Source of the DNA: Thermocrinis sp.
Lineage (GTDB): Bacteria; Aquificota; Aquificia; Aquificales; Aquificaceae
NCBI GenBank assembly: GCA_020833645.1
Contig: JAJHRQ010000003.1
Span: 1 to 64,000, forward strand
Direction of reading: 5' to 3'
Length of the DNA stretch: 64,000 nt
Below the pieces are notes generated by a model, which worked only from the letters and a program-made list of their open reading frames with translations, did no database searches and was not told the DNA's origin. Position numbers and translations under genes: made by a program. Shown here in pieces: positions 6,348 to 35,845 of the stretch. Position 1 is the stretch's first letter. Each line of letters starts with the position of its first letter.

Positions 6348-7000
6348 GAAACATAGACCACTTCGTTCATGTGGAAGAGCTTCCCCACCACCCCGGGGGA
6401 AAGTCTCTCCTCCAAACTGTTTAAAAGGTCTTCCTCGGACTTCTTAAGCTGGTAGTTGGTGGTGATGAGAGTACTAAGTTGATGATTGTAGCGGTATGTG
6501 ATGAGCAAAGAAAGAACCTCTATGCTCCAATCGGAGAGCCTTTCACTGCCTAGGTCATCCAGCACCAAAACAGGAACCCTCATCAAAAACTTTAGCATCC
6601 TACTGTATTTATCTTCCTCGGAGCCTGCGTAAAATCTAAGTTGAAAGAGCATCTCCTTAGTATCAAAGAAAAAGCCTCTTACCCTTTTTTGTTTGTATAG
6701 TGCCTTTAGGATACCCACTACCAAATGGGTCTTTCCCATCTGGGGAGGTCCCACTAAGGTAATGCCCTTGCCCTCCTCGGGATTAAAATTGAAAACAAAT
6801 TCCTTACAGACTTCAAGGGCTCTCCTTTGGGCTGGGGAGATGGGTTGGTAGTTATCAAGCTCCGCACTCCAGAACTTTTTAGGAATGTTTAAAAGCCTTT
6901 GAAAGTTCTCCTCCTTAAACCTACATTGGCACAGTTCAACCACATTACCCTTATCCACAAAGCCCGTTCCCTTACAGATTGGACAGTTTTTGTCTGCCAT
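6344..7000 (-). CDS. DnaC/IstB-like AAA+ ATPase (helicase loader family) with N-terminal Cys motif
   Basis: Walker [12 protein letters not shown], Walker [12 protein letters not shown]-terminal [10 protein letters not shown]...CQC. Confidence 0.8.
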
Positions 7001-7042
7001 GGTATTATATATATATGAGGTTATTCTAAAAATATAAACCTA

Positions 7043-7070
7043 TTGAAAGGTTTTTGGAAAGTGATATAAT
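7043..7070 (+). promoter_or_regulatory. Promoter inside repeat element A
   Basis: TTGAAA (7043-7048), 16 nt, TATAAT (7065-7070); same arrangement in copy D. Confidence 0.6.
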
Positions 7071-7077
7071 TTTTTCC

Positions 7078-7324
7078 AATGCAAAGCTTTCAGAGCTTGC
7101 TGGATACCCGTTGTGGGGCCACTGGAAGGAACCCTGAAGACGGGAAGGATTGGACAATCCTTGCCATTGTCCAGCAGGTTCTGAAGGTAGCCCTCCTCTT
7201 CCCTGTTCTTGAGAGGAGAATACTCCTCTCCTCCCGCAAGGGAGCGTGGGACAGGGTGATGGAAGGGTTAGTTCCCTTTGAGGCTGGGGGGACGGTCCCG
7301 ATAAGGGATTTTTAGAACAGCCTC
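7078..7324 (+). ncRNA. Putative structured RNA of repeat element A
   Basis: CTTTCAGAGCTTGCTGGA pairs with TCCAGCAGGTTCTGAAGG; GAGAGGAG-AATA-CTCCTCTC; CTCCC-GCAA-GGGAG; CCCTGTTC/GGACAGGG; end hairpin. Confidence 0.65.
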
Positions 7325-7356
7325 TGGTATTATATTAATCCCACGGGGAGAAAAAG

Positions 7357-25773: not shown

Positions 25774-25857
25774 GCCGGAGTGGCGGAACTGGCAGACGCG
25801 GGAGATTCAAAATCTCCTGCCCGCAAGGGCGTGGGGGTTCGAGTCCCTCCTCCGGCA
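25774..25857 (+). tRNA. tRNA-Leu(CAA)
   Basis: Acceptor GCCGGAG/CTCCGGC, anticodon loop ATTCAAAAT, long variable arm CCCGCAAGGGCG, T-loop GGTTCGAGTCC; CCA not encoded. Confidence 0.93.
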
Positions 25858-33527: not shown

Positions 33528-33580
33528 GACTGTCGTTATTCCGCCGGGGTATCCCGATGAGGGATTTTTAGAACAGCCTC
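33526..33580 (+). repeat. 3' remnant C of the structured repeat element
   Basis: GAGACTG...TCCCGATGAGGGATTTTTAGAACAGCCTC overlaps and follows the DUF29 stop. Confidence 0.65.
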
Positions 33581-33815
33581 AAAAGTCCGTTGCCTGAAAA
33601 AGGCTACTGGCTTATACTTAATCAAAACCTACAAAGGAGTTTTGCCATGAGAGAATGCCTAAGGCTGATAACCGAGAGGCGGTCAATTACATTCTTTGAC
33701 CCAAACAGAGAAGTTCCCAATGAACTTATAAAGGAGATTTTAGAGATCTCCACCACCGCACCCTCCGGATACAACCTCCAACCTTGGGAAGTGGTAGTAG
33801 TAAAGGACAAGGCCG

Positions 33816-34113
33816 TTCTAAAAAACAAACCTATTGAAAAGTTTCTGGGAAGTGATATAATTTTATCTGTGCAAAGCTTTCAGAGCTTGCTGGATGCCCG
33901 TTGTGGGACCACTGGAAGGAACCCTGAAGACGGGAAGGATTTTAAAATCCTTGCCATTGTCCAGCAGGTTCTGAAGGTAGCCCTCCTCTTCCCTGTTCTT
34001 GAGAGGAGAATACTCCTCTCCTCCCGTGAGGGAGTGTGGGACAGGGTGAGGAAAGGGTTAGTTCCCTTTGAGGCTGGGGGGACGTCCCGATGAGGGATTT
34101 TTAAAACAGCCTC
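33816..34113 (+). mobile_element. Full-length copy D of the structured repeat element, inserted in the nitroreductase gene
   Basis: Near identical to copy A; left hairpin, TTGAAA-N16-TATAAT, long structured RNA, terminal GAGGCTG...CAGCCTC hairpin; no ORF of recognisable family. Confidence 0.8.
33869..34113 (+). ncRNA. Putative structured RNA of element D
   Basis: 18-bp stem 33877-33894/33960-33977, CTCCC-GTGA-GGGAG, GAGAGGAG-AATA-CTCCTCTC, AAAGGG-ttagtt-CCCTTT, TCCC-gatga-GGGATTTTT. Confidence 0.65.
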
Positions 34114-34501
34114 ACATAGTGTTTATCGCAAACCCAAGGGCAGGCTTTGAGCACGTGGATAAGGTTTTGGACAGCTGGGTGGAGCTTGGCTACATACCCA
34201 AAGAAGCAAAGGAGAAGCTAAAAGAGAACATCCAGAGGGGATGGACCGACAGAGAGAAGGCTGTGAGAAAGGCTATAAGGGATACCGCCCTCTTTTGTAT
34301 GACGGTTATGATCGTAGCAAGGGCTTATGGGCTTGAGACCCATCCGATGGAGGGCTTTGACGAAGAGAGATTAAAGGAGTTCTTGGGGGTAGATAAGGAT
34401 AAGGTTATACCCGTTATGCTTGCCATAGGATACAAGGACCCTCAAAGGGAGCTACTTCCAAGGGCATACCGCTTTAAGTTTGAAGAATTTGGCAGGTTTC
34501 T

Positions 34502-35845
34502 ATGAGGTTTATAAACACAGACCTAACCTGCAGGCTTGACGCCCTTCCCTGGACGGGCTTTCACACCAGGTTTGTTTTAGCCCTTGGCATCACTTGGGTC
34601 TTGGACGCCTTTGAAGTAGTCATAGTAAGTGCAGTCCTAAAGCCCATGGCAAAAGCCCTCCAATTTACCACCCAGCAGGCTTCTCTGATGGTAAGCGGTT
34701 TTCTCATAGGTGCCATATTAGGGTCCTTGATCTTTGGCTACTTGGCAGACAGGTTCGGCAGGAAAAAACTCTTTATTCTTACATTACTTCTGTATGCTGG
34801 GGGCACTTTTTTAACGGGCTTTGCCAATAGTTTTGAATCCGCCTTGCTCTTTAGGATCTTGGCGGGTGCTGGCTTGGGTGGAGAGTTTGCAGCGATCCAG
34901 TCCGCAATAGACGAGTTTGTGCCCGCCCGCCACAGGGGAAAGGTGGATGGCACCATCACCGCCCTTTGGAACTTGGGAAGTATTATGGCTTCTTTATCTG
35001 CTTTGTATCTTTTAAAGCAATTTGACGAAGGCTTTGCTTGGAGGATTGCCTTTTTTATTGGTGGTCTTTTGACCCTTTTGATCATATACATAAGGATATA
35101 TGTGCCCGAATCTCCCAGATGGCTCATCTCCAAAGGAAGGCTGAAGGAAGCGGAGGAGATCGTCAAAAAAGTGGAAAGAGAGGCGGGCATCTCTCCAAAG
35201 GTGGAAAGTTGTCAAATTCCCGTTTTTGAGGGTAGCATATGGGATGCCACCAAGCTGATCCTAACCAAATACTGGTGGAGGTTTCTCTTTAGTGCGTCGA
35301 TGAGTTTTACCATACTTACCACCTACTACGGCATGCTCGCCTTTCTACCCTTGGTTCTTTCAAAGGTCTATAATCTTAGCTCCAAGCAGGTCTCCGAGGT
35401 GCTCTTCTTCGGAAGTGTGGGGGGACTGATTGGGGGTCTTGTGGTAGCCTTTTTAAACGACCGAGTGGGTAGAAAGGTGCTTGGGGTTAGCATAAGCGGG
35501 CTCTCCGCTTTGGCGGTTTTTCTGTTTTTGCTAACGGACGCAAACCCTAAAGTTCTTTACTTTTTGTATTCGTTGATCGCTTTTTCCTTTGCCTCTGTGG
35601 CATACGTGATCGCAACGGAGATATACCCATCCTACATAAGGGCATACGCCATAGGGGTGCTCTCCGTTGTGGGAAGGCTCTCGGGTGCCTTTGCACCGGT
35701 GCTTGTGATAGCTTTGGCAAACCAAGACTACCGGCTTGGACTTTTGTGTATATCCCTCTTTTGGCTTGTGGGATTTTTTGCCTTTGTGATATACGCCATC
35801 AAGGGAAAAGAGACCAAGGGCATGCCCATAGAACAGATAAGTTGA
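34502..35845 (+). CDS. MFS transporter
   Basis: 447 aa, 12 TM; GYLADRFGRKKLFILTLLLYAGGTFLTGFA, FLNDRVGRKVLG. Confidence 0.9.
   Translation: MRFINTDLTCRLDALPWTGFHTRFVLALGITWVLDAFEVVIVSAVLKPMAKALQFTTQQASLMVSGFLIGAILGSLIFGYLADRFGRKKLFILTLLLYAGGTFLTGFANSFESALLFRILAGAGLGGEFAAIQSAIDEFVPARHRGKVDGTITALWNLGSIMASLSALYLLKQFDEGFAWRIAFFIGGLLTLLIIYIRIYVPESPRWLISKGRLKEAEEIVKKVEREAGISPKVESCQIPVFEGSIWDATKLILTKYWWRFLFSASMSFTILTTYYGMLAFLPLVLSKVYNLSSKQVSEVLFFGSVGGLIGGLVVAFLNDRVGRKVLGVSISGLSALAVFLFLLTDANPKVLYFLYSLIAFSFASVAYVIATEIYPSYIRAYAIGVLSVVGRLSGAFAPVLVIALANQDYRLGLLCISLFWLVGFFAFVIYAIKGKETKGMPIEQIS

What the first reader, a model, noticed from the sequence alone, without database searches (positions are those of the whole stretch)
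7158..7324. Covariation within the repeat family supports RNA-level selection
Seen: the apical tetraloop changes GCAA (A) to GTGA (D), both GNRA, with the CTCCC/GGGAG stem unchanged. The end hairpin is GAGGCTG/CAGCCTC in A and D but CTGGAGG/CCTCCAG in remnant B, changing both sides of the stem. The inner TCCC-gatRa-GGGA hairpin is kept in A, C and D.
Basis: seen in the sequence. Interest (0 to 1): 0.7.

Follow-up and report, generated by a model that had tools for sequence, protein, structure and literature searches.

The report
Guide-RNA-only mobile elements in hot-spring bacteria

Summary
Window 7158-7324 is the 3' part of a 308-bp MITE (7017-7324) in a Thermocrinis-group (Aquificaceae) genome. 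It has 17-bp terminal inverted repeats (TIRs), a target-site duplication (TSD), its own extended -10 promoter, and a structured RNA filling the rest (z -5.7). Full-length 1642-bp elements with the same TIRs encode a TnpB-family protein whose 3' end overlaps the same RNA; a 934-bp IS with the same TIRs encodes a DDE transposase. The RNA is therefore best read as a TnpB guide (omega) RNA.

Covariation is real across relatives: 97.4% of cells paired, 14 pairs changed on both sides (shuffled mean 6.5, 0/500), and the top of 15,533 column pairs is a helix pair. MITE copies alone, which are noncoding, show it more weakly.

Decisive extra: at 22 of 22 sites with a TSD, CA (21/22 GNCA) lies directly 5' of the TSD on the side where a TnpB target motif belongs; GNCA is never mirrored (0/22). 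Inferred mechanism: TSD plus right flank is the guide, and TnpB supplied in trans cuts empty sites. Nuclease activity and RNA expression are untested.

The parts
6996..6999 (+). GCCA, putative TAM (GNCA) directly 5' of the target-site duplication
   Evidence: GNCA directly 5' of the TSD at 21/22 insertion sites; present at the empty site in four congeners
7000..7010 (+). left copy of the target-site duplication TGGTATTATAT (followed by an extra ATATAT, 7011-7016)
   Evidence: identical to 7325-7335; a single copy at the empty site in G053-G056
7017..7324 (+). MITE copy A: TIR-bounded, noncoding, omega-RNA-only element
   Evidence: TIR pair (I4); empty sites in congeners; family members
7017..7033 (+). 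left terminal inverted repeat
   Evidence: 17 nt, 88% complementary to 7308-7324
7043..7070 (+). promoter: TTGAAA, 16 nt, TATAAT with TG before the -10
   Evidence: 11 of 12 consensus bases; kept in most MITEs of the genus and of G027
7078..7324 (+). predicted solo omega-RNA scaffold (start inferred from the promoter); transcription would run on into the flank
   Evidence: fold z -5.7; covariation; homologous to the 3' end of tnpB elements; no terminator-like site found
7086..7188 (+). P1 long helix 7086-7106/7168-7188 enclosing two small hairpins
   Evidence: 99.5% paired, 6 of 17 pairs changed on both sides in A1; A-U to G-C changes among MITEs
7194..7262 (+). P4 helix with two apical hairpins, including the GNRA hairpin 7231-7244
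   Evidence: GNRA loop seen as GCAA, GUGA and GUAA
7271..7293 (+). P5 stem GTTCCC/GGGGAC with loop holding GAGGCTG
   Evidence: top covarying pair of the whole alignment; 99.5% paired
7280..7286 (+). pseudoknot strand GAGGCTG, pairs with the right TIR CAGCCTC (7318-7324)
   Evidence: 98.3% paired in A1; only GCTG/CAGC kept in half of the MITEs
7296..7308 (+). P6 inner hairpin TCCC-GATAA-GGGA
   Evidence: replaced by ACTCTACGTGAGTAGAGT and ACTCTACGGAAGTAGAGT hairpins in G033/G030
7308..7324 (+). right terminal inverted repeat, also the 3' end of the RNA scaffold
   Evidence: 20-nt TIR pattern found 53 times in the genome against 1 for the control
7325..7344 (+). predicted guide: TSD plus right flank (TGGTATTATATTAATCCCAC)
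   Evidence: lies directly 3' of the scaffold; GCCA directly 5' of it at the empty site
33809..34113 (+). MITE copy D (92.7% identical to A), inserted in a nitroreductase-like gene
   Evidence: same insertion in G054
33552..33580 (+). remnant C: last 29 nt of an element
   Evidence: 96.6% identical

Best explanation
The structured RNA is the guide (omega/re) RNA of a TnpB-family nuclease whose transposon has been taken over by a DDE transposase. SHOWN: (a) parent elements of 1642 bp with TIRs and 9-13-bp TSDs encode a TnpB-family protein; (b) the MITE is the same kind of element with the gene missing but a promoter, the RNA and both ends kept; (c) a DDE transposase IS has the same TIRs; (d) the RNA structure covaries; (e) CA/GNCA lies directly 5' of the TSD, on one side only. 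INFERRED: DDE transposase acting in trans moves all three element types. Transcription from the MITE's promoter runs off the right TIR into the flank, so the duplicated target plus right flank becomes the guide. TnpB made by full-length copies binds the MITE's RNA in trans, and the complex recognises GNCA followed by the unoccupied target and cuts it, so that repair from an occupied copy restores or spreads the MITE. The MITE would thus be a parasite of both the transposase and the nuclease.
For: Parent protein: TIGR01766 E 6e-15, 55.5 bits against cut-off 32; RuvC D/E/D kept in relatives; eight full-length copies without stops in the genome. The open frame runs through the RNA to the TIR, as known for IS200/IS605 TnpB. 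Same TIRs on tnpB elements, MITEs and the DDE IS (PF01609 E 2e-12); composite L107 joins the DDE end, tnpB and RNA ends with one TSD. GNCA directly 5' of TSD 21/22, mirrored 0/22; over all ends, left 39/45, right 0/24, DDE IS 3/10 and 8/16. Real empty sites in four congeners. Covariation. A 3' pseudoknot with the terminal bases and PK-dependent activity are reported for IS607 TnpB (PMC10711439; PMC11061315). Promoter kept in MITEs. MITE insertions shared between species.
Against: No expression or cleavage data. The protein lacks the Zn-ribbon cysteines and scores below NCBI's guided_TnpB cut-off (49 against 100); the AlphaFold model is poor (pLDDT 50) and gives no support. The DDE IS alone also prefers GNCA, so the motif may be partly transposase preference; only its one-sidedness (p 0.008, few DDE copies) points to TnpB. 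No Rfam family matches. The left junction (GNCA + TSD) would match the first 9-13 guide bases, so the nuclease must need a longer match to spare the element itself. That the MITE RNA still fits TnpB is inferred: it differs from the tnpB-linked RNA by a closed internal loop in P1 and a shortened apical P4.
Confidence: 0.78

Rival explanations
1. Ordinary MITE: the RNA is a passive relic of an internally deleted tnpB element, moved by the DDE transposase; structure and motif are hitch-hiking and transposase preference, with no guide function.
For: DDE IS copies show GNCA at some ends too; some MITEs are decayed (L172, L195); G056 has only tnpB fragments yet carries MITEs.
Against: Pairs are kept in 98.2% of cells among noncoding MITEs across two genera, with double changes; promoter kept; GNCA never on the wrong side.
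Confidence: 0.2
2. The MITE RNA is a decoy or regulator: it binds TnpB without productive targeting and protects or tunes the system.
For: MITE scaffolds differ from tnpB-linked scaffolds in P1 and P4; half of the MITEs carry a shortened pseudoknot.
Against: MITEs keep GNCA plus TSD in the guide orientation as strictly as tnpB elements (12/14 and 27/31).
Confidence: 0.1
3. The fold acts as DNA (transposase recognition of hairpins at the element end), not RNA.
For: One pseudoknot strand is the TIR itself (7318-7324).
Against: Invariant or frequent G-U pairs on one strand (P1 columns 1-104, 10-95, 12-93, 20-85) would be A-C mismatches on the other strand; the DDE IS with the same TIRs has a different inner sequence at its ends; the helices extend over 200 nt from the end.
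Confidence: 0.04

Closest known systems
IS200/IS605 and IS607 TnpB with omega/re RNA (e.g. ISDra2, ISXfa1, ISFba1)
   Same: TnpB-family protein with RuvC D/E/D; structured RNA overlapping or following the gene at the right end; 3' pseudoknot with the terminal bases; target motif 5' of the guide; role in keeping or spreading the element (PMC10278001, PMC10711439, PMC11061315, PMC11870625)
   Different: Here the element has TIRs and 9-13-bp TSDs and shares its TIRs with a DDE IS; no Y1 or serine transposase in the element; no Zn ribbon; the motif sits 5' of the TSD, so the duplicated target itself should begin the guide
Fanzor1 / Fanzor2* in eukaryotic cut-and-paste transposons (PMC10711439)
   Same: TnpB relative carried by a TIR/TSD transposon, sometimes non-autonomous; TIR bases form part of the RNA scaffold
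   Different: Bacterial, and without the Zn ribbon; in Fanzor1 the TSD is reported to be absorbed in the scaffold, whereas here the TSD varies in sequence and length and lies 3' of the motif, so it should be guide
Bacterial MITEs
   Same: Short, TIR-bounded, TSD-flanked, noncoding, related to longer elements with the same ends
   Different: Keeps a promoter and a complete, covarying guide-RNA scaffold

Membership tests
TnpB RNA-guided nuclease family | Sequence match to curated TnpB models | tested here: met
   TIGR01766 55.5 bits, cut-off 32; but NF040570 guided_TnpB 49 bits, cut-off 100, is not reached
TnpB RNA-guided nuclease family | RuvC catalytic D, E, D | tested here: met
   IDxNA, (V/I)E(N/K/R)L and KDxAxAxVI(G/A)R conserved across 28 aligned proteins
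TnpB RNA-guided nuclease family | Zn-ribbon CxxC motifs next to RuvC-III | tested here: not met
   The stretch NPAYTSVIGMLKYAPQ..DKD has no cysteine pair, in this clade or its relatives
TnpB RNA-guided nuclease family | Structured RNA at the 3' end of the gene and right end of the element | tested here: met
   Covarying RNA overlapping the ORF end and ending at the TIR
TnpB RNA-guided nuclease family | RNA-guided DNA cleavage | not testable with these tools
   Needs an experiment
IS200/IS605 or IS607 element | No TIRs or TSDs; Y1 or serine transposase | tested here: not met
   TIRs, TSDs of 9-13 bp, single 523-aa ORF
MITE | Short noncoding element with TIRs and TSD sharing its ends with a transposase-encoding IS | tested here: met
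   308 bp, no gene, TIRs, TSD and empty sites; DDE IS with the same TIRs
IS4/IS5-type DDE insertion sequence (the presumed mobiliser) | DDE transposase domain | tested here: met
   PF01609 47.8 bits, cut-off 23; NCBI equivalog cut-offs for IS4/IS5 subfamilies are not reached
Any described Rfam RNA family | Match above the gathering score | tested here: not met
   Only a tRNA at 25774-25857 in the whole window; nothing credible at relaxed thresholds

The most novel reading that the evidence does not exclude
Bacteria contain guide-RNA-only selfish elements: MITEs with their own promoter whose sole product is a TnpB guide RNA that records the insertion site through the target-site duplication, using transposase and nuclease made by other elements. 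The parent lineage is a bacterial TnpB captured by a DDE transposon, a prokaryotic parallel to Fanzor but with the TSD used as guide rather than scaffold.
Probability: 0.6. Interest if true: 0.85.

Novelty: new variant of a known kind. Interest (0 to 1): 0.76.

Why it matters
The papers read here place TnpB in bacteria in IS200/IS605 and IS607 elements, and cut-and-paste (TIR) elements with TnpB relatives in eukaryotes (Fanzor). This lineage would be a bacterial capture of TnpB by a DDE transposon, showing how such capture works: the transposase's target motif doubles as the nuclease's target motif, the TIR becomes a pseudoknot strand, and the duplicated target becomes the guide. Guide-only MITEs would be among the simplest RNA-guided selfish elements and would allow use of guides in trans to be tested directly. 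The clade is thermophilic and lacks the Zn ribbon, so it may also interest those looking for compact heat-stable nucleases.

Tried and rejected
Rfam at gathering and relaxed thresholds: nothing. AlphaFold of the TnpB from eight close homologues: pLDDT 50, pTM 0.30, too poor to search. phmmer against the PDB: no significant hit. The GNCA motif as proof of TnpB targeting: tempered, because DDE-only copies carry it too. GAGGCTG/CAGCCTC as a simple hairpin: it competes with P5, the best-covarying stem, so a pseudoknot is more likely; counted as such. The MAFFT alignment misplaces P3 and P6 in some rows, so those helices were not relied on. Literature searches for a bacterial TnpB in a DDE element or a guide-only MITE found none in the open-access library; most subscription papers were not searchable.

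Full report
OBSERVATION. The claimed both-sided change in remnant B is not: B matches A only weakly (E 0.19) and its CTGGAGG/CCTCCAG stem is offset, sharing only GAGG/CCTC. The region is the 3' part of a 308-bp element, 7017-7324, bounded by 17-nt inverted repeats.

FAMILY. The genome holds about 30 matches to 7158-7324 and 53 matches to the 20-nt TIR pattern, against one to the reversed control. Three kinds of element share the TIRs: (i) tnpB elements of about 1642 bp with one 523-aa ORF; (ii) MITEs of about 305-308 bp, four in this genome and more in congeners and in Hydrogenobacter sp. RSWP5; (iii) an IS of 934 bp with a DDE_Tnp_1 transposase.

PARENT PROTEIN. It matches TIGR01766 (TnpB-related) above cut-off, keeps D/E/D and lacks the Zn ribbon. 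The TIR-bearing copies form one clade with support 1.000. Relatives at about 45% identity, some in the same genomes, end in ...GGTNACCAGG without these TIRs and look IS607-like by eye (that label is my reading of the ends, not a test).

RNA STRUCTURE. Alignment A1 holds 33 right ends from the window's genome and six relatives in three genera. A blind scan of 15,533 column pairs puts P5 pair 225-237 first (C-G, U-A, A-U, G-C), and helix pairs rank far above others (Mann-Whitney p 5e-9; pairs are not independent, so read this as a rank statement). With the named structure, 97.4% of cells pair and 14 pairs change on both sides (shuffled 6.5; 0/500; slid structures 3-6). Part of this is one split between MITEs and tnpB copies. 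Among 18 MITEs alone, which code for nothing, 98.2% of 1335 cells pair and 17 cells are double-changed (shuffled 7.0; 0/500), but the number of double-changed pairs, 5, is unremarkable (204/500). RNA 7078-7324 folds at z -5.7. G-U pairs fix the strand as +.

PSEUDOKNOT. GAGGCTG lies in the loop of P5 and pairs with the terminal CAGCCTC of the TIR (98.3% of cells). In 9 of 18 MITEs it reads TCCGCTG or TTCGCTG, leaving GCTG/CAGC. A pseudoknot with the terminal bases is reported and tested for IS607 TnpB (PMC10711439), and PK mutations abolish ISFba1 TnpB activity (PMC11061315).

ENDS AND MOTIF. At 22 insertions with a recognisable TSD (9-13 bp; 9 MITEs, 13 tnpB elements), the two bases 5' of the TSD are CA in all and the four are GNCA in 21; the mirrored TGNC 3' of the TSD occurs in none. 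For all ends, GNCA sits 9-13 nt from the left end in 39/45 (6% expected by shuffling) and from the right end in 0/24; DDE-only IS ends show it in 3/10 (left) and 8/16 (right). The transposase therefore probably prefers GNCA itself, and the guide-bearing elements are found only in the orientation that puts it 5' of the guide. The end lists were compiled by hand, and the right-end list is from this genome only. Copy A's empty site survives in four congeners: GCCA|TGGTATTATATTAATCCC.

PROMOTER. TTGAAA-16-TATAAT with TG before the -10 (7043-7070; 11/12) recurs in most MITEs and differs in detail from the tnpB promoter TTGACA-17-TAAAAT. No terminator-like site lies in the element, so transcription would enter the flank.

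MECHANISM. Shown: architecture, covariation, motif, TSD, shared TIRs. Inferred: mobilisation in trans by the DDE transposase, guide = TSD + right flank, TnpB in trans, cutting of empty sites and retention or spread, as shown for IS200/IS605 TnpB in plasmids (PMC11870625). Because the left junction repeats GNCA plus the TSD, the model needs a match longer than the TSD for cutting; an effective guide of only 12 nt, as reported for Dra2TnpB (PMC10278001), would endanger the element. This is a sharp test.

COMPARISON. In Fanzor1 the TSD and TIR are reported to be part of the scaffold (PMC10711439). Here the TIR is scaffold, but the TSD varies in sequence and length and lies directly 3' of the motif, so it should be guide. 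I found no report of a bacterial TnpB in a DDE element or of guide-only MITEs in the searchable library; absence there is not proof of novelty.

VERDICT. The finding is a new variant of the TnpB/omega-RNA theme; its activity is untested.

Noticed in passing
window 33590-34505: MITE D splits a nitroreductase-like gene: both halves match PF00881. The same insertion is present in congener G054.
   Followed up: partly
L064:563-1496 (G000:C50:35362-36295): The DDE IS sits in a sequence that matches the left end of an IS607-like TnpB element (compare L137), so one TnpB transposon family appears to have been hit by the mobiliser of another.
   Followed up: no
L107: Composite element: DDE-IS right end, part of the DDE gene, tnpB and omega-RNA right end, flanked by TSD TGAACATTT; possibly a trace of the original fusion.
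   Followed up: partly
L201: An 84% identical TnpB of this clade lies on a contig labelled Candidatus Caldipriscus sp. T1.2: horizontal transfer or a binning error.
   Followed up: no
L003/L179, L004/L169, L181/L172, L193/L189/L183: MITE insertions shared at the same site between different species, i.e. kept through speciation.
   Followed up: partly
L119, L120 (G033, G030): The inner 3' hairpin is replaced by a different, longer hairpin (ACTCTAC..GTAGAGT) while the flanking stems are kept.
   Followed up: partly
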